DNA of 64,000 bases, from positions 1-64,000 of the forward strand of contig VEQH01000013.1 of assembly GCA_018883325.1 (NCBI GenBank), in the 5' to 3' direction. Origin of the DNA: Flavobacteriales bacterium (lineage in GTDB: Bacteria; Bacteroidota; Bacteroidia; Flavobacteriales_D; Crocinitomicaceae). Within the stretch, counting starts at the first letter, position 1, and each line of letters starts with the position of its first letter. Made by a program: the position numbers and the translations under genes. Positions 15,136-28,147 of this stretch are shown piece by piece. Below the pieces are notes generated by a model. That model had not been told where the DNA came from and did no database searches. It saw only the letters and a list, made by a program, of their open reading frames with translations.

Positions 15136-15882
15136 TTAAAACCCAAAATTATCATACCCATTTTGGGTCAATTCTTGGTATTTTTCTTCGTTAAATTTGT
15201 AAAGTTCTGAAGGTTTGTGTGGAACGCCTTCTTGCTTTTCATTCAGATTAGTTAGAATATCGAGTTTCTGAACTTTACGTCTAAAATTTCGTTTGTCTAA
15301 TTCTTTATCTAAAATGCTTTCATACAATTTATGCAATTGACTGAGCGTGAATTTTTCGGGTAAAAGGTTGAATCCAATCGGTTGAATTTTAATTTTTTCC
15401 TTCAATTTATTTCTTGCCGCTTGTAAAATATCGTAATGGTCAAAAGCTAAATCTTTAATTTCATCTGCAGGAATCCAAGCTGCATTTTTCGCAAATGAAG
15501 CAGCGTGTGGCATATAATCTTCCATTTTCACTAAGGAAAAATAGGCTACAGTAATTACTCTTGCCTCAGGCTCAGCACGTATAGATTTTAACCAAGCGCG
15601 GTCGGCTTCTTTGCAAATTCTGTTTGGGTCGCCAAAAGCACCAATTTGCTCAAGGTAAATATCTTTTAAACTCGTCAACTCTTCCAAAACACGATAAGCA
15701 GCTTGTTCGAGGTTTTCGTTATTGTAAATTAAGTTTCCCGGAAGCGCTAAACGAACATTTTCTGCTAGTTCATTTTCACCTCGATCGATAACCAAAACAT
15801 TAAGCTTTTCTAGGTCAAAACCGAATATGACACAGTCAACTGATACATTAGGGTTTAACTCAGAAACATTTTTTTTTTGCAT
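15136..15882 (-). CDS. NrtR-type Nudix-domain transcriptional regulator
   Basis: A 248-residue protein with an N-terminal Nudix fold (about 10-150) and a C-terminal winged helix (about 160-230; FTLSQLHKLYESILDKELDK, then RNFRRKVQKLDIL), the layout of NrtR-family regulators. The Nudix box is degenerate (a G-x(n)-RVLEEL remnant), so it probably senses a metabolite rather than hydrolysing one. In Bacteroides a member of this family regulates arabinose genes, and this gene is divergent from, and 80 bp away from, the sugar-kinase/amylase operon. I infer that it controls the starch/maltose locus. The ligand cannot be deduced. Confidence 0.85.
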   Translation of the reverse strand: MQKKNVSELNPNVSVDCVIFGFDLEKLNVLVIDRGENELAENVRLALPGNLIYNNENLEQAAYRVLEELTSLKDIYLEQIGAFGDPNRICKEADRAWLKSIRAEPEARVITVAYFSLVKMEDYMPHAASFAKNAAWIPADEIKDLAFDHYDILQAARNKLKEKIKIQPIGFNLLPEKFTLSQLHKLYESILDKELDKRNFRRKVQKLDILTNLNEKQEGVPHKPSELYKFNEEKYQELTQNGYDNFGF

Positions 15883-15909
15883 AATTTATACTTCTTTTGC
15901 GATAATACT

Positions 15910-15917
15910 TATATTTG
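15910..15917 (+). promoter_or_regulatory. Putative -7 box and operator of the maltose locus
   Basis: TATATTTG fits TAnnTTTG and lies 45 nt before the kinase ATG. A GTGT/ACAC inverted repeat with a 7-base gap follows at 15921-15935 and could be a binding site for the divergent NrtR-type regulator. No second copy supports it. Confidence 0.35.
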
Positions 15918-15962
15918 AAAGTGTAAAAATGACACACAGACCATTAAATCAATATTAAATTT

Positions 15963-16826
15963 ATGTATTTCATAGCAGAAAGTGGATCAACTAAATGCGA
16001 CTGGATGTTAGTCGATGGCAAAAATAACCAAAGTTTTTGTTCAACGATGGGCTTCAACCCATATTTTCATTCATCCGATTTAATTGAAACTGAATTAGAA
16101 AAAGTTGAAAAGATTGCAGCTATTGCATCTGAAATTAAAGGAGTTTACTTTTATGGCGCAGGTTGTTCAAGTGAAGAACTGAATGCAAAAGTTGAAGAAG
16201 GGTTGAAACGAGTTTTTAAAAACGCCAAAATTATAGTCGATCACGATTTGCTTGCTTGTGCTTACGCAACCTACAGTGGCAAACCTCAGATTTCTTGTAT
16301 TATCGGTACCGGTTCAAATTCTTGCTATTTTGACGGAGAAAAACTTTCAGAAGAAGTTCCTGCTTTGGGCTACATTCTTGGCGATGAAGGAAGTGGAAGT
16401 TATTTTGGTAAACAATTGATTGCTAATTTTTTATATCATCGTTTACCTACTGAAATCGAGCAAGATTTTATTGCAACTTATCATTATACCAAAGATGATT
16501 TAGTTGAAAACGTTTACATGAAACCGAATGCAAATGTGTTCATCGCTTCATTTATGCCATTTATTGGAAAACACAAAGACAATCCTTATTTCAAAGACAT
16601 GGTTCGCGAAGGATTTAAAAAATTCATAGATGTTCATGTTACTTGCTATAAAAATTACAAAGATGTTGAAGTGAATTTTGTTGGTTCAATTTCTCAAATT
16701 TTTGAACAAGAACTTCACGAAGCTGCTGCGGTTTACGGTGTTACGATTGGTTCATTGATTAGAAGACCGGCAGAAGCACTTGTTGCTTACCATCTTAAAT
16801 ATATTTTAAACACAGAAATTGCATAA
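15963..16826 (+). CDS. BadF/BcrA/NagK-type sugar kinase
   Basis: A 287-residue ASKHA-fold ATPase of the BadF/BadG/BcrA family, close to N-acetylglucosamine kinases. Phosphate-binding motifs: MYFIAESGSTKCDWMLVDG at the start and IIGTGSNSCYFDG in the second half, followed by GYILGDEGSGSYFGK, the hallmark of the NagK subgroup. It begins the operon that continues with an amylase one base after its stop codon. In this context a likely job is phosphorylating glucose freed by maltose phosphorolysis, or an amino sugar. Substrate identity is inferred from neighbours only. Confidence 0.83.
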   Translation: MYFIAESGSTKCDWMLVDGKNNQSFCSTMGFNPYFHSSDLIETELEKVEKIAAIASEIKGVYFYGAGCSSEELNAKVEEGLKRVFKNAKIIVDHDLLACAYATYSGKPQISCIIGTGSNSCYFDGEKLSEEVPALGYILGDEGSGSYFGKQLIANFLYHRLPTEIEQDFIATYHYTKDDLVENVYMKPNANVFIASFMPFIGKHKDNPYFKDMVREGFKKFIDVHVTCYKNYKDVEVNFVGSISQIFEQELHEAAAVYGVTIGSLIRRPAEALVAYHLKYILNTEIA

Positions 16827-16827
16827 T

Positions 16828-18156
16828 ATGAAACATAAAAATCTACTTTTATTTGTTTTTCTAATTCTTATGAATTTCAAGGACATTGCTCAAAATGTGA
16901 CTCCAGATTGGGCAAAGAATGCAACAATTTACGAAGTAAACATCCGTCAATTTACACCTGAAGGAACTTTCAAGGCGTTTGAAACACATTTGCCAAGATT
17001 GAAAAAAATGGGAGTTGACATTTTGTGGTTGATGCCAATTCATCCAATTGGGGTTGAAAATCGCAAAGGTGGCTTGGGAAGTTACTATGCAATTAGCGAT
17101 TATAAAGCTGTTAATCCAGAATTTGGAACGCTTGATGATTTCAAAAAACTTGTAAAATCAGCACAGTCGCAAGGAATGAAAGTAATCATTGATTGGGTTG
17201 CAAATCATTCATCGCCAGATAATGTTTGGGTTAAACAAGGACATTTAGACTGGTACACATTGGATTCTTTAGGACGTATTCAACCAACAATTGGAACAGA
17301 TTGGTACGATGTTGCAGATTTGAACTACGACAGTAAAGAAATGCGCAAGGAAATGATTTCTTCTATGAAATATTGGTTGACAGAAGCAAATATCGATGGT
17401 TTCCGTTGTGATGTTGCAAGCTGGGTTCCGATTGATTTTTGGATTGAAGCACGAAAAGAATTAGATGCTACAAAAAAAGTATTCATGCTTGCGGAAGCGG
17501 AAGAAGTGGAAATGCACAAAGCATTCGACATGACCTATGGTTGGAACCTTCACCACATAATGAATGATATTGCAAAAGGGAAAAAAGATGTAACGGCAGT
17601 TTACAATTATGCCAAAGACAACAAACATCCTAAATCGGCATACAGAATGAATTTCACTTCTAACCACGACGAAAATTCGTGGAACGGAACTGAAATGGAG
17701 CGAATGGGTGAAGCACGTTTCGCTTTTGCTGTTTTTGCGGCAACGTTTGAGGGAATGCCTTTAGTTTACAATGGACAAGAAACTTCATTAGACAGAAGAT
17801 TGAAGTTTTTTGACAAAGACTCAATTGATTGGTTAAAAATGGATTTAGTTCCTTTTTACACTAAGTTATTACAGTTAAATCGTTCGAATAAAGCACTTTG
17901 GAATGGAGAAAATGGGGGAGAAGTGAAGTTTATTTCTGCTGCTGACGAAAAAAATGTTTTAGTTTTCTCAAGAGAAAAAGACGGTGACAAAGTTGTTGTG
18001 ATGATAAATATGACTGGAAATGACCAAAAAGTAAAATTAAATAACACCTTACTTGCTGGAAAATACAAAGAATTGTTCTCGGGGAAGAAAGTCAAAATGA
18101 AAGCCGAAGTAGAAACTGAGATTGAAGCTTGGGGATATAGGGCTTATTATAAATGA
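16828..18156 (+). CDS. GH13 alpha-amylase-family glycosidase, secreted
   Basis: A 442-residue GH13 enzyme acting on alpha-1,4-glucans. ATG 16828 gives a clean signal peptide (MKHKNLLLFVFLILMNF, cleavage near residue 23) and starts one base after the kinase stop; the upstream TTG at 16819 is unlikely. Catalytic motifs: nucleophile Asp near 195 in DGFRCDVASWV, acid/base Glu in VFMLAEAEEVEMH, transition-state Asp in FTSNHDENSWNG, and region I in VIIDWVANHSS. No T9SS tail is present, so it is likely periplasmic: it would trim maltodextrins before import. The C-terminal ~80 residues form the usual beta-sandwich domain C. Confidence 0.92.
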   Translation: MKHKNLLLFVFLILMNFKDIAQNVTPDWAKNATIYEVNIRQFTPEGTFKAFETHLPRLKKMGVDILWLMPIHPIGVENRKGGLGSYYAISDYKAVNPEFGTLDDFKKLVKSAQSQGMKVIIDWVANHSSPDNVWVKQGHLDWYTLDSLGRIQPTIGTDWYDVADLNYDSKEMRKEMISSMKYWLTEANIDGFRCDVASWVPIDFWIEARKELDATKKVFMLAEAEEVEMHKAFDMTYGWNLHHIMNDIAKGKKDVTAVYNYAKDNKHPKSAYRMNFTSNHDENSWNGTEMERMGEARFAFAVFAATFEGMPLVYNGQETSLDRRLKFFDKDSIDWLKMDLVPFYTKLLQLNRSNKALWNGENGGEVKFISAADEKNVLVFSREKDGDKVVVMINMTGNDQKVKLNNTLLAGKYKELFSGKKVKMKAEVETEIEAWGYRAYYK

Positions 18157-18159
18157 AGA

Positions 18160-18180
18160 ATTGAAAATTGAAAATTGAAA
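18160..18180. repeat. Three 7-bp tandem units (ATTGAAA)
   Basis: ATTGAAA occurs three times head to tail directly after the amylase stop codon. It is a minor satellite in the same spacer as the larger 8-bp array. Confidence 0.75.
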
Positions 18181-18220
18181 ATTATCTCATTATTAAATTC
18201 ATCTTTCCCTCATTCGCTCC

Positions 18221-18300
18221 TAATGTCCTAACATCCTAAAGTCTTAATGTCCTAAAATCCTAACATCCTAAAGTCCTCATATCTTAATGTCCTAACATCT
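18221..18300. repeat. Ten 8-bp tandem units before the MFS gene
   Basis: Ten consecutive 8-base units with consensus TAANRTCC: TAATGTCC three times, TAACATCC or TAACATCT three times, TAAAGTCC or TAAAGTCT twice, plus TAAAATCC and TCATATCT. Together they occupy exactly 80 bp and end six bases before the MFS transporter ATG, where the ribosome-binding and promoter region should be. A change in copy number would move the upstream promoter relative to the gene by 8 bp steps. Confidence 0.9.
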
Positions 18301-18306
18301 ATAAAC

Positions 18307-19659
18307 ATGCAAAACACTAAACCTAAATTATCCTTTTGGCAAATCTGGAACATGAGTTTTGGATTTTTGGGAATTCAAATGGGATTTGCGCTACAAAACG
18401 GAAACGCAAGTAGAATTCTTACAGATTTCGGTGCAAATGTTGAAAGTCTTTCATGGTTTTGGCTCGTTGCACCATTAACAGGTATGATCGTGCAACCAAT
18501 TATTGGATATTGGAGTGATCGAACTTGGTCCAAAACACTAGGAAGAAGAAGACCTTATTTCTTGGCTGGAGCAATTTTAGCTTGTACAGCTTTGGTTCTA
18601 CTTCCAAATGCAGATAAGTTTACGGGTGTATTTCCTGCGTTGCTTGTTGGTGCTGGTTTCTTGATGATGATGGATACATCTTTCAATATTTCTATGGAGC
18701 CTTTTCGTGCCTTGGTTGCGGATAATTTACCAGAAAGTCAAAGTACAAGAGGATTTTCAATTCAAACTGCTTTAATTGGAGTTGGTGCCGTTGTTGGTTC
18801 TTTTCTTCCATGGATTCTTGCCAATTGGTTCGGCGTTCCAAATAATTTGACAAATGTAAAAGTGCAGCCAAATGTGGTTTATTCTTTTTACATCGGAGCG
18901 GTTGTTTTTATGGCAGCAATTCTTTGGACAATTTTTAAAACAAAAGAATATTCTCCACAAGAACGCATCGAAATGGGGATTGTTGAAGCTGAAAAACCAA
19001 AAGAAAAATTCAAAATTCCAACTACAATGTGGAAACTTGGATTAATTCAATTTTTTTCTTGGTTTGGATTATTTTGTATGTGGGTTTACACAACAACAGC
19101 TTTAAGAGAACATACTTATGACTTGCCTTCTATCGATTCGTTAAAGGAAACATTGTCACAAAATCCGCATGATAAAATTGCTTTAGGACAATTAGCTTTA
19201 AGTGAAAACTTGGGAGATTGGGTTGGAATTTTATTCGGAATTTATAACGGAGTTTCAGCAATTTTTGCCTTGTTAATTCCAATGATTGCGACTAAAATTG
19301 GTAAATCTAGAACACACATGGTCTCTCTCGTTTTGGGTGGATTTGGACTGATTTTAATGTATTTTATGCCTGATAAAAACGCAATGATTTTACCGATGAT
19401 ATTCATTGGTGTTGCTTGGGCAAGTATTCTAGCAATGCCATATTCAATGTTATCAGGGGTGATTCCTGCGGATAAAATGGGTGTTTTTATGGGAATTTTT
19501 AATTTCTTCATCACCTTACCTCAAATTGTGAGCGCATTGTTCTCAGGGCCAATTGTAAAGCATCTTTTTGGAGGAAATGCAGCTTATGCACTTATGCTTG
19601 GTGGTGGCTTAATGATTTTAGCAGGAATATTGAATTTTACTATAAAAAATGAAAATTAA
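18307..19659 (+). CDS. MFS sugar transporter (maltose/SLC45-like)
   Basis: A 450-residue, 12-helix major facilitator of the subgroup found with maltose phosphorylase genes in Bacteroidota. Motifs: LTGMIVQPIIGYWSDRTWS and KTLGRRRPYFLAGAI (the RGRRRP loop of the GPH/SLC45-like families), and SMEPFRALVADNLPESQ. A cytoplasmic insertion lies around residues 260-310. It should bring maltose or short maltodextrins across the inner membrane with protons. Its 3' end overlaps the phosphoglucomutase gene by 11 bp. The 5' spacer is filled by a tandem 8-bp repeat. Confidence 0.88.
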   Translation: MQNTKPKLSFWQIWNMSFGFLGIQMGFALQNGNASRILTDFGANVESLSWFWLVAPLTGMIVQPIIGYWSDRTWSKTLGRRRPYFLAGAILACTALVLLPNADKFTGVFPALLVGAGFLMMMDTSFNISMEPFRALVADNLPESQSTRGFSIQTALIGVGAVVGSFLPWILANWFGVPNNLTNVKVQPNVVYSFYIGAVVFMAAILWTIFKTKEYSPQERIEMGIVEAEKPKEKFKIPTTMWKLGLIQFFSWFGLFCMWVYTTTALREHTYDLPSIDSLKETLSQNPHDKIALGQLALSENLGDWVGILFGIYNGVSAIFALLIPMIATKIGKSRTHMVSLVLGGFGLILMYFMPDKNAMILPMIFIGVAWASILAMPYSMLSGVIPADKMGVFMGIFNFFITLPQIVSALFSGPIVKHLFGGNAAYALMLGGGLMILAGILNFTIKNEN

Positions 19660-20290
19660 AGGATTATTATTTGACTTAGATGGGGTAATCGTAACTACGG
19701 AACACAATCATTTCGTTGCTTGGAAAAGAACAGCTGATGAATTGGGAGTTCCTTTTACGGAGCGCGAAAACGAACAATTAAAAGGAATTAGTCGCATAGA
19801 TTCGTTGAAAATGATTCTTAAAATGGGAAATGTTTTTATTTCAGAATCTGAATTTGATGCGCTATTAAAAAGTAAAAATGATTTTTATCTTGAATCGATT
19901 CAAGAGCTGAATCAGTCGGATTTGCTACCTGGCGTGATGGATTTATTACTTAAAGCAAAAGCACAAGGAATAAAATTAGGTGTTGGATCATCTAGTAAAA
20001 ATGCAAATTTCATACTTGGACTTTTAGGAATTGCCGATTTCTTCGATGTTGTTGTTGATGGAAACGGAGTAAGTGATCCAAAGCCACATCCTGAAGTATT
20101 TTTAAATGGAGCGAAAGCTTTTGGTTTTTTACCAGCAGAATGCATCGTTTTTGAAGATGCAACGAGCGGAATCCAAGCAGCAAAAACAGGAGGATTTTTA
20201 GATATAGGTGTTGGAAATCCCGAAGTAAAAGAAATAGCAACCAACTATTACAATGATTTAACTGAATTCAGATTAGAAGACTATGCGTAA
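19649..20290 (+). CDS. pgmB: Beta-phosphoglucomutase
   Basis: A 213-residue HAD-superfamily phosphatase-fold enzyme of the beta-PGM group, converting beta-glucose-1-phosphate to glucose-6-phosphate. The phosphorylated Asp and acid/base Asp are in LLFDLDGVIVTTEHNH, the substrate-binding loop in KGISRIDSLKMIL, and the HAD motifs II-III in GVGSSSKNANFIL and VFEDATSGIQAAKTGG. Length is typical. It overlaps the transporter upstream by 11 bp and the GH65 gene downstream by 8 bp, so all three are translationally coupled. This is the standard partner of maltose phosphorylase. Confidence 0.95.
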   Translation: MKIKGLLFDLDGVIVTTEHNHFVAWKRTADELGVPFTERENEQLKGISRIDSLKMILKMGNVFISESEFDALLKSKNDFYLESIQELNQSDLLPGVMDLLLKAKAQGIKLGVGSSSKNANFILGLLGIADFFDVVVDGNGVSDPKPHPEVFLNGAKAFGFLPAECIVFEDATSGIQAAKTGGFLDIGVGNPEVKEIATNYYNDLTEFRLEDYA

Positions 20291-22577
20291 TTTATTTGAT
20301 ATAGATAATTGGAAAATAATTGAGAAATCGTTCGATCCAACGAAACAAAAACAGGCTGAAAGTATTTTTAGCATCGGAAATGGTTCGTTTGGTCAACGTG
20401 CAAATTTTGAAGAAAAATATTCTGGCGACACCTTACAGGGAAGTTATGTGGGAGGAGTTTATTACCCAGATAAAACACGTGTAGGTTGGTGGAAAAATGG
20501 TTATCCAGAATATTTTGCAAAAGTGCTTAACGCTTGCAATTGGATTGGAATAAACATCGAGATTGATGGAATTGCTTTAGATTTAAGTACTTGTGAAGTG
20601 AGTTCATTTTACCGTGAATTAGATATGTTCAGAGGTACATTAACAAGAAAATTCAAAGCAAAATTTTCTAATGGAAAAGAAATTGAAGTTTGTTCCCTGC
20701 GTTTTTGTTCGATGCACAGAGAGGAAGTTGCCGCAATTTCTTATTCGGTTACACCTTTGAATTTTAGTGGAAATGTAAAATTCACACCTTATTTAGATGG
20801 AAAAGTTTCCAATCACGATTCAAACTACAACGAGTTTTTCTGGGAAGAAGATAGTCGAAAAGTCGATAATAAAAAAGGTGTTGTTTGTGCAAAAACGAAG
20901 AAAACAAACTTTGCTGTAGCAACGGCAATGCGTTATTCTTTTTGGCGTGAAGGAGAACTCTTAGATATTCATCCAAACATTGCGCAACAAGAGTTTTATG
21001 TTGAGAATAATTTTGAACATTACCTTGAAAAAGGGGTGAAGTTTACGCTTAAAAAGTATGTTTCAATTGTTTCAACTTTAAATCATTCTGAATTTTCGAT
21101 TATCCCAAGAGCAATAAATCAAGTGAGAGATGCGTATATCGCTGGTTTTGATGCACTTTTAGCTGAACACGAAAGTGCTTGGTCAGAAATATGGAAAAAT
21201 GCGGATATACAAATTGAAGGTGACACAGCTGCACAACAAGGAATTCGTTTCAATATTTTCCAGTTGTATCAGACTTACACAGGAAAAAACGCAAAATTAA
21301 ACATTGGTCCAAAAGGATTTACAGGTGAAAAATACGGCGGTGCAACTTATTGGGATACAGAAGCTTATTGCTTGCCATTTTACTTAAAAACAGCGTCACC
21401 TGAAATTTCTAAACAATTATTAATTTATAGGTATAATCACTTAGAAAAAGCAATTGAAAATGCAGCAAAATTAGGTTTTATAGATGGCGCTGCTTTGTAT
21501 CCAATGGTGACCATGAACGGTGAAGAATGTCACAATGAATGGGAAATTACTTTTGAGGAAATTCATCGAAATGGCGCAATCGCTTTTGGTATTTACAACT
21601 ATGTTCGACATACTGGCGATGTTGCGTATTTAGCGCAATACGGACGTCCAGTTTTGGTTGGAATTGCACGTTTTTGGGCACAGCGTTTCAATTGGTCGGA
21701 AAGTAAAAAAGCTTATGTAATGCTTGGCGTAACTGGTCCAAATGAATATGAAAACAATGTTAATAACAACTGGTACACCAACTATTTAGCAAAATGGTGT
21801 ATTCAATATGCTTTAGAAGTTGACACACAAATTCGTCAAGAATCTAAATCAGTTTTAACTGCTGGTGAAGAGGAAAAATGGCAGCATATTATTGACAATG
21901 TTTATTTCCCGAAATTAGAAGGAACAAATATCTATTTACAGCAAGATGGATTTATGGACAAGGAGCAATTATCAGCTTCCGATATTCCAGAAAATCAACG
22001 TCCGATCAATCAGCATTGGTCTTGGGATAGAATTTTACGCTCTATTTTTATCAAACAAGCAGATGTTTTACAAGGACTTTATCTTTTTGAAGATCATTTT
22101 GATAGCGAAACTTTACGCGAAAACTTTGATTTTTACGAACCAAAAACAGTTCATGAATCTTCTTTGTCGCCATGTGTTCACGTGATTTTAGCTGCCAAAA
22201 TTGGCAATATGGACAAAGCGTATGAATTGTATTTACGCACTTCTCGTTTAGATTTAGATGATTACAACCACGAAGCTGATGAAGGTTTACACATCACTTC
22301 GATGGCTGGTACTTGGATGAGTGTTGTGGAAGGAATGGCAGGTGTTAGAATTCATGAAAATGGTTTAAGCATTGATCCTAAAATTCCTGCCGCATGGAAA
22401 TCCTATAAATTTCAAATTCTTTACAAAAACAATCCGATAGCAATAGCTGTTACTCAATCGGAAATAAAAATTAAAAATTTAGGTGAATTTTCGTTGGAAA
22501 TGAGTGTTTTAGGAGCTGAAATCACCTTGAATGCAACAGAAGAAAGAACAATAAATTTGACAACACTAACCGTTTAA
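20283..22577 (+). CDS. GH65 maltose phosphorylase-type enzyme
   Basis: A 764-residue GH65 inverting phosphorylase that splits an alpha-glucobiose with phosphate into glucose and beta-glucose-1-phosphate. Domains: N-terminal beta-sandwich (about 1-270), linker, and (alpha/alpha)6 barrel (about 310-680) with the general acid Glu488 in GVTGPNEYENNV, plus WDTEAYCLPFYL and ESSLSPCVHVILAAKIG, then a small C-terminal sheet domain. No signal peptide, so cytoplasmic. Maltose is the probable substrate, since it sits between beta-PGM and alpha-amylases; kojibiose or trehalose phosphorylases share the fold. Confidence 0.92.
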   Translation: MRNLFDIDNWKIIEKSFDPTKQKQAESIFSIGNGSFGQRANFEEKYSGDTLQGSYVGGVYYPDKTRVGWWKNGYPEYFAKVLNACNWIGINIEIDGIALDLSTCEVSSFYRELDMFRGTLTRKFKAKFSNGKEIEVCSLRFCSMHREEVAAISYSVTPLNFSGNVKFTPYLDGKVSNHDSNYNEFFWEEDSRKVDNKKGVVCAKTKKTNFAVATAMRYSFWREGELLDIHPNIAQQEFYVENNFEHYLEKGVKFTLKKYVSIVSTLNHSEFSIIPRAINQVRDAYIAGFDALLAEHESAWSEIWKNADIQIEGDTAAQQGIRFNIFQLYQTYTGKNAKLNIGPKGFTGEKYGGATYWDTEAYCLPFYLKTASPEISKQLLIYRYNHLEKAIENAAKLGFIDGAALYPMVTMNGEECHNEWEITFEEIHRNGAIAFGIYNYVRHTGDVAYLAQYGRPVLVGIARFWAQRFNWSESKKAYVMLGVTGPNEYENNVNNNWYTNYLAKWCIQYALEVDTQIRQESKSVLTAGEEEKWQHIIDNVYFPKLEGTNIYLQQDGFMDKEQLSASDIPENQRPINQHWSWDRILRSIFIKQADVLQGLYLFEDHFDSETLRENFDFYEPKTVHESSLSPCVHVILAAKIGNMDKAYELYLRTSRLDLDDYNHEADEGLHITSMAGTWMSVVEGMAGVRIHENGLSIDPKIPAAWKSYKFQILYKNNPIAIAVTQSEIKIKNLGEFSLEMSVLGAEITLNATEERTINLTTLTV

Positions 22578-22588
22578 AATTTTAAGAA

Positions 22589-24934
22589 ATGAAAAGAATT
22601 TTGCTATCCGTATTTGTTCTAATTGCTTTTTTACAAACGTCAAATGCTCAAGTAAATCCAACAAATCGTCAGATTGTCCTTCAAGGATTTTGGTGGGATT
22701 ATTGGAATTCTAATTATCCAAATGGATGGGCGAATTATTTGGCAGAGTTAGCACCTCGTTTAAAAGATTTAGGTGTTGATGCTGTTTGGATTCCACCAAC
22801 GATTAAAAATGCTGGGACAAACAGTGTGGGATATTCGCCTTTTGATCATTACGATTTAGGAGATAAATGGCAGAAAAATTCTTTGAAAACGCGTGTTGGT
22901 GACAAAGACGAATTGTTGCGTATGGTTGCTGTTATGAAAGCAAATGGTATTGATGTTATTCAAGATATTGTCTTAAATCACGTTACAAATGCTGGAAGTG
23001 CAACTGGAGCTGGTGGCGCTGATCCTGCTGCTATGGACGATGGTTCAACTGCTAAGTTCAAAAACTTTAGATATGTAGCCTATGGAAGCCCTGCAACCAA
23101 TGAATCATCTACAAATTATTTAACGAGAGAAGGAAGATTTCCAAAAAATTGGCAAAATTTCTACCCAAACAATAACAATGTTTGTTGTACTAATGCTATC
23201 AATTCTCCTTATTGGGGTCCAGATGTTTCCTATGAAAGTAATGCGTTTGGTTTAAGTTCCAATGCGACATTTAACCCCGTTCAATCAAGTGATTACATGC
23301 GTACTAATATGCGCAATTGGATGATTTGGTATAAAAAACAAGTTGGTTGGGATGGAATCAGAATTGACGCTGTAAAACATTTTCCGTCTTATGTGATGGA
23401 AGATATTCTTTGGAACTTACAAAATAACGCTGGATGGGCGAGTGGAGGTAATGAGTTTTTCTCTGTTGGTGAATGGGTCGGAGGTGCATCTGATTTGGAT
23501 AGTTGGGTTGGTGCGGTTCAAGATCGCTCAGGAACCTTTGATTTCGCAATTCGTGGCGCAATTCAAAATATGGTGAATGGAAATGGTAATTTTGATTTAG
23601 CAACAATTCCTTCTGCTCAACAATCAAATAGAAACAGAACAGTACCATTTGTTAACAATCACGATACTTTCAGACCTATTTTAACCTCTTCTGGAAATTA
23701 CAATGGCTGGAATTCAGGCTCTCAATTAGGAACTCAAATCGAACCAAACGATGGTAGAAATAGCGCTGCTCATGCAATTGCACTTTCCGTTGATGGAGCG
23801 CCACAAATTTTCTTTGAAGATTTATTTAATATTGGTTATAACGGTAATCGATTCAACCATCGTCCTAATGTTGACACAACTTTGCCAGTAAGAAGCGATA
23901 TTGAAAATTTAATTTGGTGTCATCAAAATTTACGTTTTAAAGAAGGCGCTTATTTCGTTCGTTGGCAAGCAGCAGACGCATTGGTTATCGAAAGAGGTGG
24001 AAAAGCTTTAATCGGAATAACAGATAATTGGACAACATGGCAAGATTTAAATGGAGTTCAAACTTCATGGCCTGATGGAACTGTTTTAGTTGATTATTCT
24101 GGCGCAAATGGTACTGCAACACGTACTGTTTACGGCGGTGGAAAAGTCAATATTAGCATACCTCCGTGTAATGGAACGGCGGCACAAGGCAGAAGAGGAT
24201 ATTGCGTTTGGGCTCCAGAGGGAATTGTTGAAAATTACGAACGTCCAGCGAAAACAGTTACTCAAGAATGGGAAATGGAGGATGATTTAGGTGATAGCAA
24301 TGTTAAATCACTTGAGCAAGGCGGACGATTACCAAATAATAGTTTAGATTGTAGAACTGTTGGTAGAATTTTTGCAAAATCGGGTTCTCAAATTTCACTA
24401 GAGTTATATCCATCTGCACCAACAAATTCAATTACTTTAATATTAGTTGACAAAGAATGTAATCAAATAGATTCAATTTCAGGAACAGGAAATTTAGTTT
24501 TCAATAAAACAGCAACTTACGATGGTTGGCACACGATTCGAATAAGAAACACAACAGCGACTCAAAATGGTCAAAAATGTTGGGTAAAAGCAACGTATAC
24601 TGCTCCTGCTGTGATTCAAACGAATGTGGTTAAAAACAAATGTGCTTGTGCTGCCCCTTCAACAGTAGGGTTGGAAGAATTAATCGAAGAAAATGGAATT
24701 TCAGTTTATCCGAACCCATCTAAAGAATCAATTACTGTTGAATTTACAGGGAATTACTCAATAGATCCTGAGTGGGCAGTTTTGGATTTAAGCGGAAAAA
24801 AAGTTCTTTCAGGAAACGATGCTAATTTCTTATTCCATATTGACATTTCTCAGTTGATGAATGGCTATTATGTTTTTACTTCTAATGTAAATGGAGTAGA
24901 AGTGCGCAAGAAATTCGTGAAAATGGCTGAATAA
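22589..24934 (+). CDS. GH13 alpha-amylase with T9SS sorting tail
   Basis: A 781-residue extracellular alpha-amylase. The signal peptide covers about residues 1-20 (ending SNAQ). The barrel starts IVLQGFWWDYWNSNYPNGW; catalytic motifs are region I DVIQDIVLNHV, nucleophile Asp in GWDGIRIDAVKHF, Glu in FFSVGEWVGG and Asp in FVNNHDTFRP. After domain C (to about 540) comes a ~120-residue beta-rich domain with Cys pairs that may bind glucan, and a T9SS tail starting SVYPNPSKESITVEF. This is the likely first enzyme to attack starch outside the cell. It follows the GH65 gene after 11 bp, so it belongs to the operon. Confidence 0.93.
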   Translation: MKRILLSVFVLIAFLQTSNAQVNPTNRQIVLQGFWWDYWNSNYPNGWANYLAELAPRLKDLGVDAVWIPPTIKNAGTNSVGYSPFDHYDLGDKWQKNSLKTRVGDKDELLRMVAVMKANGIDVIQDIVLNHVTNAGSATGAGGADPAAMDDGSTAKFKNFRYVAYGSPATNESSTNYLTREGRFPKNWQNFYPNNNNVCCTNAINSPYWGPDVSYESNAFGLSSNATFNPVQSSDYMRTNMRNWMIWYKKQVGWDGIRIDAVKHFPSYVMEDILWNLQNNAGWASGGNEFFSVGEWVGGASDLDSWVGAVQDRSGTFDFAIRGAIQNMVNGNGNFDLATIPSAQQSNRNRTVPFVNNHDTFRPILTSSGNYNGWNSGSQLGTQIEPNDGRNSAAHAIALSVDGAPQIFFEDLFNIGYNGNRFNHRPNVDTTLPVRSDIENLIWCHQNLRFKEGAYFVRWQAADALVIERGGKALIGITDNWTTWQDLNGVQTSWPDGTVLVDYSGANGTATRTVYGGGKVNISIPPCNGTAAQGRRGYCVWAPEGIVENYERPAKTVTQEWEMEDDLGDSNVKSLEQGGRLPNNSLDCRTVGRIFAKSGSQISLELYPSAPTNSITLILVDKECNQIDSISGTGNLVFNKTATYDGWHTIRIRNTTATQNGQKCWVKATYTAPAVIQTNVVKNKCACAAPSTVGLEELIEENGISVYPNPSKESITVEFTGNYSIDPEWAVLDLSGKKVLSGNDANFLFHIDISQLMNGYYVFTSNVNGVEVRKKFVKMAE

Positions 24935-25073: not shown

Positions 25074-27560
25074 TTGAAAAGTAATTTAAAGTTATTTGTT
25101 TGTTTACTGTATTCTACTGTTTTTTCTACTTTTTCACAAGTAGCGACAATACAGCATTATTCAATAAATAGTGAAGGTCAAGTGCAATTAGAGATTAACT
25201 CTAGTTCTGACAAATACTATATCTTACAGGTTAAACATCATGTTGATTCAGCATTTGAAGTTTATTCTTCTTTAACTTTAGGAGTAGATGGAACAACAAT
25301 AATTACGGAACAGCTAAAAGCATACCCACAAAATCACTATCAAGTTTTAGAATTTGCCATCAATACACCACAAGATATTGATTCGGATGGAATTAATGAT
25401 TTGATAGATTTTACTGAAATGCCATTAAATGGTCCTTTTAATTCGGCAGGAACTATCGGTACTGAACAAGGTTTGTTGACTTTGAATAGTTTTGATGCGT
25501 TTGAGATTGTTTCAACAAAAGAAAACGGTACACCTTGGGTTGAATATCTTAATGGAGTTGAATATACAAAGTTTTTAATTGATGATTTCTATTCAAATTC
25601 ACCTAAAATCTATTTTATAAATAGTAACACCTATAACTTACATGTTGATTTTGCTAATAATTTAGGTATTGACCATTTAAGTCCGAATGTGAAAAAAGGA
25701 CAATTAATTTTTCATCCATCAGTGATTTCTCCAAACGGAACCTTGGGAACATTTTCTTTTAATTTTAGCAATAATGAGGCTCAAGCAACTAATATTGTTC
25801 AACGTACACATGAATTACTTGCGTCGAATATGCTCTTCTTGAAAAATAACTTTTCTTATTTTATCACTGAAAATAATGAAGATGATTATTACAACAATCA
25901 GTCTTTTTACGAAAATTCAAGAATTCCAGTTTTGTTTGAGTCAAATGTTTATGAGGGAATTAATTACCTAGGTTTAAATCAAACAGAAGGTTTTGGTTTT
26001 TTTCGATACATGTCACCTGGAGAATTACCAAATTCTAGAGATATTGTTTTATACGACGTTTTACCAAATTCATTACCTAGAGTAGGAGGAATTATTACAT
26101 CGATGATTCAAACACCTCTTTCACATGTTAATTTGCGTGCGATTCACGATAATGTTCCAAATGCTTTTATTAGAAACCCTTTAGAAAATCAACAGATAAG
26201 CAGTTTGCTTAATCATTATATTTATTTTAAAACCAACCAAAATAATTTCGAGATTAGGGAAGCAACTGTAGCTGAAGTAAACGCTTGGTTTGAATCAATT
26301 AGACCACACAAAGAACTTGATCCTCCTTTGAATTTGGACTTGAAAAATATTCTTCCTTTAGCTGAAATTACATTTGAGATGTACGATGCTTATGGTGCTA
26401 AAACCTCAAATTTAGCAACCATGAAAACCTTTGATTTCATAGAAGGAACAGTACCAGATGGATTCGGTATTCCCTTTTATTATTATCAAGAATTTATGAA
26501 ATCGAATCAATTAATGGATGAAATGGTTTTGCTTTTGGAAGATTCCTCTTTTATGAATGATCGTTTGATTCGAGAAATTAAATTGGCTGATTTTAGAGTA
26601 AAAATTAAGAATGCACCAATGCCTGATTGGATGATGAATGAACTTTTTTTGATGCAACAATCCTTTCCACAAGGTACCTCAATTCGTTGTCGTTCAAGTT
26701 CAAATAATGAGGATTTACCAGGGTTTAATGGCGCAGGACTTTATGATTCAAAAACACAACATCCGAATGAAGGACATATTTCTAAATCGATTAAACAAGT
26801 GTATGCGAGTTTATGGAATTTAAGAGCTTTTGAGGAGCGAGAATTTTATAGAGTGAATCATTTTAAATCTGCTATGGGCGTACTATGTCACCCGAATTTT
26901 GAAGATGAGAAAGTAAATGGTGTAGGGATAACCACAGATCCAATTTATTCAACAGAAAACCGGTTTTATATCAATTCTCAATTGGGGGAAGAACTTGTGA
27001 CAAATCCAACAAGTACTTATCCAGAGGAACTTTTATTGAATACAATTACATCTGAAAATAATTTATTTGCGGTCATTCAATATTCGAGCTTAGTCTCAAA
27101 TGATTCACTTCTGATGAATAATGAACAATTGACTTTATTGCGTGATTATATGTTAGAAATTCATACCCGTTTTGAAAAATTGTATCACGCAGAAAACAAT
27201 GAAACCTTTGCAATGGATATAGAATTTAAAATAGACAGTATCGGACAATTAGTTATTAAACAGGCTCGACCTTGGGTTTCTTATTTGCCGTCCAATAATG
27301 TTTCAAATTATAAATCTTGTGATTTTTTAATTTCCCCAAATCCAACAGTTGATTTAATTCATCTAGTTTGTTTGAATTCTGGAATTTCTAAATTGCAAAT
27401 AGTTGATTTGAAAGGCTCTATTTTATTTCAAGAAAATTATGACCCAATAGATAAACTTGATTTTAAAATACCAGTCGATGAACTTTCGAATGGTATTTAT
27501 TTTATTAATGCATTTCGTTTTGACTCTGTCTGTAAGATGTCGAAATTTATTAAGTTTTAA
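25074..27560 (+). CDS. Secreted PEP/pyruvate-binding, glucan dikinase-like protein with T9SS tail
   Basis: An 828-residue secreted protein beginning at a TTG; no in-frame ATG exists upstream and a stop precedes it. The signal peptide is residues 1-21. Domains: an N-terminal beta-rich part (22-300) of unknown fold; a PEP-utiliser-like swivelling domain with candidate phospho-His near 351 in TPLSHVNLRAI; an ATP-grasp PPDK-N domain (about 430-740) with RCRSSSNNEDLPGFNGAGLY near 540 and IKQARPW near 730; and a T9SS tail (ISPNPTVDLIH). His domain before nucleotide domain is the order of alpha-glucan water dikinase, whose motif is SHVSVRAR as I recall. It follows the T9SS amylase, suggesting a starch role. 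How it would obtain ATP outside is unclear. Confidence 0.75.
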   Translation: MKSNLKLFVCLLYSTVFSTFSQVATIQHYSINSEGQVQLEINSSSDKYYILQVKHHVDSAFEVYSSLTLGVDGTTIITEQLKAYPQNHYQVLEFAINTPQDIDSDGINDLIDFTEMPLNGPFNSAGTIGTEQGLLTLNSFDAFEIVSTKENGTPWVEYLNGVEYTKFLIDDFYSNSPKIYFINSNTYNLHVDFANNLGIDHLSPNVKKGQLIFHPSVISPNGTLGTFSFNFSNNEAQATNIVQRTHELLASNMLFLKNNFSYFITENNEDDYYNNQSFYENSRIPVLFESNVYEGINYLGLNQTEGFGFFRYMSPGELPNSRDIVLYDVLPNSLPRVGGIITSMIQTPLSHVNLRAIHDNVPNAFIRNPLENQQISSLLNHYIYFKTNQNNFEIREATVAEVNAWFESIRPHKELDPPLNLDLKNILPLAEITFEMYDAYGAKTSNLATMKTFDFIEGTVPDGFGIPFYYYQEFMKSNQLMDEMVLLLEDSSFMNDRLIREIKLADFRVKIKNAPMPDWMMNELFLMQQSFPQGTSIRCRSSSNNEDLPGFNGAGLYDSKTQHPNEGHISKSIKQVYASLWNLRAFEEREFYRVNHFKSAMGVLCHPNFEDEKVNGVGITTDPIYSTENRFYINSQLGEELVTNPTSTYPEELLLNTITSENNLFAVIQYSSLVSNDSLLMNNEQLTLLRDYMLEIHTRFEKLYHAENNETFAMDIEFKIDSIGQLVIKQARPWVSYLPSNNVSNYKSCDFLISPNPTVDLIHLVCLNSGISKLQIVDLKGSILFQENYDPIDKLDFKIPVDELSNGIYFINAFRFDSVCKMSKFIKF

Positions 27561-27616: not shown

Positions 27617-28147
27617 ATGAGGCAAAAAATATTTCTTTCAAGCGTTCAAAAGGAATTTGAATTAGAGCGAGTAGTCTTGCACCGTCATTTGCATTCAGAT
27701 AAAGCAGGTTTTATAGAGCGTTTCGGAACAGGTACAGGAGAGATTTTACGTTTGTGCTCAGAGGCAGGATTAAAGGAGCCAATTTTCAATTTGGAAGAAG
27801 GTTTTTCAGTCACGATTTTTCGTCCAATGACAGTGCAAGTTACCGAGCAAGTCACCGCGCAAGTCACCGAGCAAGTCACCGAGCAAGTTGTTTCACAAGT
27901 ATTTGTTAATCTGAGTGTTATAGAAAGATTAGTTTGGGTTTTGGAAGGAGAAATGAAACGAGATGAGATTCAATCTGCATTAGATTTGAAGCACCGCGAA
28001 AATTTTAGAGATACTTATTTGAACCCTTCAATTGAAGAAGGTTTCGTGGAAATGACGATTCCTGAAAAGCCAACAAGTTCAAATCAAACATATCGATTAA
28101 CGAAAAAGGGATTGAGAAAATTAAAAGAGTTAAAGAGAAAAAAATGA
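27617..28147 (+). pseudogene. Internally deleted DUF4062 / AAA_4 protein
   Basis: A 176-residue open frame joining two ends of a much longer protein. The first ~20 residues (MRQKIFLSSVQKEFELER) are the start of DUF4062. From residue ~32, FIERFGTGTGEILRLCSEAG and KEPIFNLEEGF are the end of the Schlafen/AlbA_2-like ATP-binding region (HATPase_c_4), followed by the VTEQ repeat linker and a winged-helix tail (IERLVWVLEGEMKRDEIQSA and so on). The ~350-400 residues that normally lie between, including the catalytic parts, are missing with the frame kept. Full-length relatives are putative DNA-binding or defence-associated proteins. Whether the short form is functional is unknown. Confidence 0.7.
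27834..27900. repeat. 12-bp in-frame tandem repeat (VTEQ)
   Basis: About five imperfect copies of a 12-base unit resembling CAAGTCACCGAG encode Q-V-T-E or Q-V-T-A repeats. This degenerate linker is usual between the ATP-binding and winged-helix parts of the family and can expand or contract by whole units without a frameshift. Confidence 0.8.

What the first reader, a model, noticed from the sequence alone, without database searches (positions are those of the whole stretch)
25074..27560. T9SS-secreted protein with alpha-glucan-water-dikinase domain order in a starch locus
Seen: signal peptide, SHVNLRA (candidate phospho-His) near residue 351, then an ATP-grasp domain with RSSSNNEDLPG and QARPW, then a T9SS tail; it lies 139 bp after a T9SS amylase and the maltose operon. 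Known: PPDK and PEP synthase have ATP-grasp first and the His domain later, while plant glucan water dikinase has the His domain (SHVSVRAR, from memory) before the nucleotide domain. Inference: an extracellular enzyme or glucan-binding relative acting on starch granules. An ATP-dependent dikinase outside the cell would be unexpected, so it may be a repurposed fold or use another donor.
Basis: partly seen in the sequence, partly recalled or inferred. Interest (0 to 1): 0.72.

Follow-up and report, generated by a model that had tools for sequence, protein, structure and literature searches.

The report
Secreted dikinase-like protein, not starch-linked
This gene makes a cell-surface protein built like the ATP-powered, phospho-histidine enzymes related to plant starch kinase, with every key catalytic residue kept, but its place next to starch genes is peculiar to this one genome, so it is an exported phosphate-transfer enzyme with an unknown target.

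Summary
Window 25074-27560 encodes 828 aa: signal peptide, β domain, an N-domain (138-302) without a recognised fold, a phospho-His swivel domain with invariant QTPLSH351, a PPDK_N ATP-grasp (440-734, E 3e-27) and a T9SS tail. Its relatives form a large family in Bacteroidota. The ATP-binding residues and the His are invariant in 22 aligned homologues, including signal-peptide-less relatives from other phyla. Structure models place the two domains nearest rifampin phosphotransferase and PEP synthase. Seven of 22 homologues match Pfam's GWD phospho-His domain and none match the ordinary PEP-utilizer domain.

The starch link fails. None of about 45 homologue loci carries a starch gene. Eight genus-mates have the same maltose operon without this gene, and gene presence does not follow the GH65 gene. 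No CBM45 is found.

Other partners appear in related forms. A long T9SS form always has an exported histidine phosphatase next door (13 of 13 loci). A distant periplasmic form tracks an NTT-HEAT nucleotide transporter (10 of 10 strong matches in 395 genomes). The window's genome lacks both.

Best reading: an exported phospho-His dikinase with permuted order and an unknown, probably non-starch, acceptor.

The parts
25074..27560 (+). T9SS-exported dikinase-like protein, 828 aa, TTG start
   Evidence: homologues at 51-64% identity over the full length
25074..25139 (+). signal peptide, residues 1-22
   Evidence: hydrophobic N-terminus ending FSQ; signal-peptide-like N-termini in the Bacteroidota homologues that are complete at the N-terminus
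25149..25388 (+). N-terminal beta-rich (Ig-like) domain, residues 26-105, found in the T9SS forms only
   Evidence: AlphaFold secondary structure; absent from 640-aa and non-Bacteroidota forms
25485..25979 (+). N-domain, residues 138-302, conserved in A, B and D forms (K166, N183, H190, F193); proposed acceptor-binding domain
   Evidence: no confident PDB match for this part
25980..26303 (+). phospho-His swivel domain, residues 303-410
   Evidence: Foldseek to RPH swivel domain, AF_0055, Enzyme I N-domain; GWD1_pHisD in homologues
26109..26126 (+). QTPLSH motif with the candidate phospho-histidine H351 (codon 26124-26126)
   Evidence: invariant in 22 sequences
26349..27284 (+). PPDK_N ATP-grasp domain, residues 426-737; K443, R538, R540, E546, D547, S559, D715, E717, Q730, R732 invariant
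   Evidence: Pfam; Foldseek to RPH E 2e-16, PEPS, HpeI, PPDK; alignment
27330..27557 (+). T9SS type A C-terminal sorting domain, residues 753-828
   Evidence: PF18962 and TIGR04183 above cut-off
15963..24934 (+). neighbouring maltose/starch operon (BadF kinase-like, GH13, MFS, beta-PGM, GH65, T9SS GH13); judged NOT functionally linked

Best explanation
It is an exported, surface-displayed phospho-histidine dikinase-type phosphotransferase of an uncharacterised Bacteroidota family with permuted order (N-domain, His swivel, ATP-grasp). Shown here: the domains, export and sorting signals, strict conservation of the catalytic residues, purifying selection in the family, and absence of a conserved starch link. 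Inferred: ATP bound in the ATP-grasp domain phosphorylates H351, releasing AMP and Pi; the swivel domain carries the phosphate to the N-domain (138-302), which presents an acceptor at the cell surface. The acceptor is unknown; a surface or environmental polymer or small molecule other than starch is most likely. The ATP would have to come from outside the cell or by leakage or transport; for the window's own form this is unexplained.
For: PPDK_N 96 bits and T9SS tail. H351 and the ATP-grasp residues are invariant in 22 homologues. Residues equivalent to RPH Lys22 and Arg117 (loss of activity or resistance when mutated, PMC4844700) are K443 and R540; Thr136 aligns with invariant S559, read from the alignment. 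Foldseek finds RPH/PEPS/PPDK for the ATP-grasp and the RPH swivel domain for 303-410. Related forms without a signal peptide in Pseudomonadota and Actinomycetota keep the same residues. dN/dS of homologue pairs is about 0.05-0.08. Export signals are seen across the A, B and C forms. Exported partners occur in sister forms: a His_Phos_1 gene adjacent in 13 of 13 A_long loci and present in 12 of 12 A_long genomes against 0 of 39 A_short, B-form or gene-lacking genomes, and an NTT-HEAT transporter with the C-form.
Against: No activity is known for any member. ATP is scarce outside cells, and the window's genome has neither the NTT-HEAT transporter nor an exported histidine phosphatase (its only His_Phos_1 lacks a signal peptide). 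The N-domain has no recognised fold, so the acceptor role is inferred only from position and conservation. RPH tolerated loss of Glu297 (PMC4844700), so not every conserved residue proves catalysis.
Confidence: 0.55

Rival explanations
1. Extracellular glucan, water dikinase: it phosphorylates starch or maltodextrin granules outside the cell to help the neighbouring T9SS amylase.
For: GWD-like domain order, GWD1_pHisD matches in homologues, 139 bp from a T9SS amylase on the same strand, no terminator-like site between them.
Against: No starch gene within the searched flanks (up to 9 kb each side) of about 45 homologue loci. GH65 is in 15 of 17 genus-mates without the gene and in only 7 of 21 genomes with it. 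The operon is conserved in 8 genus-mates with no such gene behind it. In G039, G044 and G057, which have both genes, they are on different contigs. No CBM45 or other CBM hit.
Confidence: 0.07
2. Surface ATP consumer: the phospho-enzyme is hydrolysed by water, giving AMP and phosphate, for nucleotide or phosphate scavenging or as an extracellular ATP sensor.
For: Needs no unknown acceptor. A_long forms have an exported SixA-like histidine phosphatase next door, which could discharge phospho-His.
Against: The A_short genomes searched, including the window's, lack the phosphatase. No ecto-nucleotidase or phosphate-uptake genes were recognised among the A_short neighbours by their sequence (not domain-searched). 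The conserved N-domain suggests a bound acceptor.
Confidence: 0.17
3. Repurposed, non-catalytic fold: a surface binding or structural protein that keeps the dikinase scaffold.
For: ATP is not expected outside the cell; A_long forms add CARDB and SprB repeats typical of adhesin-like surface proteins.
Against: Invariance of the catalytic residues across A, B and D forms, shared with relatives lacking a signal peptide. A repurposed fold would be expected to lose His or Mg/ATP residues in at least some lineages.
Confidence: 0.15
4. A phosphotransferase driven by a donor other than ATP (polyphosphate, PPi, another nucleotide, PEP-like compound).
For: Extracellular setting; PPDK-type enzymes can use PPi in reverse (general knowledge).
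Against: Adenine-nucleotide domain conserved as in RPH/PEPS; no donor-specific change recognised.
Confidence: 0.06

Closest known systems
Plant alpha-glucan, water dikinase (GWD1/PWD)
   Same: Phospho-His domain before a C-terminal PPDK_N ATP-grasp; homologues match PF22973 GWD1_pHisD
   Different: No CBM45, exported by T9SS rather than plastidial, no conserved starch context, PF22973 matches below the family cut-off
Rifampin phosphotransferase (RPH, PDB 5hv1/5hv2)
   Same: Best fold match for the ATP-grasp and for the His swivel domain; equivalents of Lys22, Arg117, Thr136 (Ser) and His825
   Different: RPH is ATP-grasp, RIF-binding, His; here N-domain, His, ATP-grasp. No rifampin-binding domain was recognised
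PEP synthase / pyruvate phosphate dikinase
   Same: PPDK_N domain, phospho-His mechanism expected
   Different: No PEP/pyruvate TIM-barrel domain, permuted order, exported
Proteins annotated 'PEP/pyruvate-binding domain-containing protein' (e.g. Streptomyces plasmid hits)
   Same: N-domain, His and ATP-grasp alignable at 25% identity
   Different: Uncharacterised; not T9SS-sorted

Membership tests
Alpha-glucan water dikinase (GWD/PWD) | C-terminal PPDK_N ATP-grasp | tested here: met
Alpha-glucan water dikinase (GWD/PWD) | GWD-type phospho-His domain (PF22973) before it | tested here: inconclusive
   7 of 22 homologues match (best 4.8e-6), none over cut-off among those shown in detail; window protein no match at E<1
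Alpha-glucan water dikinase (GWD/PWD) | CBM45 starch-binding modules | tested here: not met
   no Pfam CBM match at E<=1
Alpha-glucan water dikinase (GWD/PWD) | association with alpha-glucan metabolism | tested here: not met
Alpha-glucan water dikinase (GWD/PWD) | phosphorylation of glucan with ATP and water | not testable with these tools
   needs enzyme assay
PPDK / PEP synthase | C-terminal PEP/pyruvate TIM barrel and ATP-grasp first | tested here: not met
   only PPDK_N and the T9SS tail match; order
Rifampin phosphotransferase | ATP-grasp, RIF-binding, C-terminal His order | tested here: not met
Dikinase superfamily (PPDK_N ATP-grasp plus His swivel domain) | both domains with catalytic residues intact | tested here: met
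T9SS-secreted proteins | N-terminal signal peptide and type A sorting domain | tested here: met
   T9SS machinery genes not searched

The most novel reading that the evidence does not exclude
Bacteroidota run an ATP-powered phosphorylation system outside the cytoplasm. Exported phospho-His dikinases (this T9SS surface form, a lipoprotein/periplasmic 640-aa form and a 970-aa periplasmic form) phosphorylate extracytoplasmic acceptors, exported SixA-like phosphatases reverse or reset it, and in the 970-aa form an NTT-HEAT nucleotide transporter, a family of unknown function (PMC5381601), supplies ATP across the inner membrane.
Probability: 0.22. Interest if true: 0.87.

Novelty: new variant of a known kind. 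Interest (0 to 1): 0.55.

Why it matters
ATP-dependent enzymes are not expected outside bacterial cells. A family that keeps all dikinase catalytic residues while being exported, and whose sister forms travel with an exported histidine phosphatase or with an NTT-HEAT nucleotide transporter, makes extracytoplasmic phosphorylation in Bacteroidota directly testable, and offers a first functional context for NTT-HEAT proteins. It also shows that adjacency to a starch operon in a single genome can mislead.

Tried and rejected
Starch link: tested by neighbourhoods, gene co-occurrence and genus-mate synteny, and rejected. GWD membership by profile: PF22973 over 198 Bacteroidota genomes gave only 4 weak matches, three of them at genes of this family. 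A solved GWD structure to compare with: none exists (PMC12892837). A conserved partner for the window-type 830-aa form: none seen in 11 loci. Exported His phosphatase or NTT transporter in the window's genome: absent. DUF4956 next to 640-aa forms is convergent rather than operonic, so it was not used. Foldseek against viral models gave only ATP-grasp or tail-level matches. Literature searches for a T9SS dikinase found no relevant description.

Full report
What is there. The ORF 25074-27560 (+, TTG start, 828 aa) is intact. It has a signal peptide (1-22), a β-rich domain (26-105), an N-domain (138-302), a phospho-His swivel domain (303-410, H351), an ATP-grasp domain (426-737) and a T9SS sorting tail (753-828). 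Pfam gives PPDK_N at 3.1e-27 and Por_Secre_tail above cut-off; NCBIfam agrees on the tail. It is the only PPDK_N gene found in this genome, which is rated 100% complete.

Family. Relatives occur in Crocinitomicaceae, Cryomorphaceae, Saprospiraceae and other Bacteroidota (55 of 249 genomes of the order), with rarer relatives in Yoonia, Thiodiazotropha, a Solirubrobacteraceae MAG, a verrucomicrobial and a cyanobacterial MAG. I name the forms A_short (the window's 830-aa type), A_long (1230-1400 aa with CARDB/SprB and a T9SS tail), B (about 640 aa, no tail, some lipoprotein-like), D (outside Bacteroidota; four of them without a signal peptide) and C (about 970 aa, distant, a different N-terminal half). 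In the tree A_short and A_long are sisters, D lies next to A, B is further out and C is far (quick method, long branches warned of). The A, B and C sequences with a complete N-terminus carry signal-peptide-like N-termini; the Yoonia, Rhodobacteraceae, Thiodiazotropha and Solirubrobacteraceae forms do not (judged by hydrophobicity and eye, not by a dedicated predictor).

Catalytic residues. In 22 sequences of A, B and D forms K443, R538, R540, E546, D547, D715, E717, Q730, R732 and QTPLSH351 are invariant. Through the alignment to RPH K443 and R540 correspond to Lys22 and Arg117 and S559 to Thr136, mutation of which abolishes or cripples RPH (PMC4844700). That numbering rests on my reading of the alignment with a 12-residue tag offset. 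Pairwise dN/dS among homologues is about 0.05-0.08, so the family is under strong purifying selection.

Structure. The AlphaFold model (mean pLDDT 83) matches RPH (E 2e-16), PEP synthase, HpeI and PPDK at the ATP-grasp. A second model of residues 136-424 (pLDDT 85) matches the RPH swivel domain, the AF_0055 swivel fold and, weakly, Enzyme I. The N-domain has no confident match. I read it as the acceptor domain because the PEP/pyruvate or rifampin domain of the relatives is missing and it is conserved in A, B and D forms; that is inference.

How near is GWD? Seven of 22 homologues match GWD1_pHisD (best 4.8e-6) and none match PEP-utilizers, while the C forms match PEP-utilizers in 7 of 9. The window protein itself does not reach E<1, and none of the matches shown in detail reaches the curated cut-off. 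The His-first order also occurs in the C form, so order alone does not make a GWD. No GWD structure exists (PMC12892837) and no GWD sequence was available here, so the relationship is suggestive only.

Starch link. Neighbourhoods of about 45 homologues (up to 9 kb on each side) hold no relative of any of the operon's genes at E<=1e-10. The 11 A_short loci share no evident neighbour. In 45 genomes GH65 is present in 7 of 21 that carry an A form and in 16 of 24 that do not; three close A_short relatives that have both carry them on different contigs. Eight genus-mates keep the same operon (regulator, BadF-like, GH13, MFS, β-PGM, GH65, mostly GH13-T9SS) with no such gene after it. The gene is therefore most simply read as a recent neighbour of an older operon. 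Its GC3 (0.215 against 0.23-0.31 for neighbours) is slightly low, which is weak evidence either way.

Partners in sister forms. A_long genes have a small exported histidine phosphatase next door in 13 of 13 loci with Crocinitomicaceae-type architecture, with catalytic RH, R and GH residues invariant. A relative of it was found in 12 of 12 A_long genomes and in none of 39 genomes with A_short, B-form or no gene of this family, but also in 4 of 5 C-form genomes. The shorter Saprospiraceae A_long loci lack it nearby. A_long is a clade, so these are not 12 independent events. The C form sits beside an NTT-HEAT protein (TLC ATP/ADP transporter domain, 4e-13, plus HEAT repeats) and two Beta-lactamase2 proteins in most loci. 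In 76 genomes the transporter occurs in all 10 with the C form and in none of the 66 others. In 395 genomes the C form occurs in 12; all 10 genomes with a transporter match stronger than 1e-200 are among them, while weaker NTT-HEAT relatives also occur without it. NTT-HEAT proteins have no known function (PMC5381601). The window's genome has neither partner; its only His_Phos_1 protein lacks a signal peptide.

Conclusion. I commit to an exported phospho-His dikinase-type phosphotransferase with an unknown, probably non-starch, acceptor (0.55). Shown: anatomy, export signals, conservation, fold, absence of a conserved starch link. Inferred: ATP to H351 to acceptor on the N-domain. Open: the source of ATP for the T9SS form and the acceptor.

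Noticed in passing
L125-L130, L132, L134 (e.g. L125:3957-12042): Conserved locus of an exported 970-aa PPDK_N protein, two Beta-lactamase2 proteins and an NTT-HEAT (TLC ATP/ADP transporter plus HEAT) protein; transporter and dikinase co-occur across Bacteroidota.
   Followed up: partly
L098-L103, L105-L109, L025, L028: Exported SixA-like histidine phosphatase (RHAEK, GHSNTT) adjacent to the long T9SS dikinase-like gene in 13 of 13 loci.
   Followed up: partly
L110-L114, L124: A DUF4956 membrane protein (PF16316 matched on the L110 copy) lies convergent to the 640-aa form in Flavobacterium-type genomes and one other family.
   Followed up: no
L029:8977-15263: A long and an 824-aa member of the family lie side by side on opposite strands in a Saprospiraceae MAG.
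   Followed up: no
window 27617-28147: Short gene just after the dikinase-like gene looks like a remnant: a start resembling DUF4062 (from memory) joined to HATPase_c_4 and Fic-like_C pieces, suggesting a rearranged insertion site.
   Followed up: no
window 15136-24934: Compact maltose operon with a NUDIX/AraR-type divergent regulator, conserved in gene order in the genus.
   Followed up: yes
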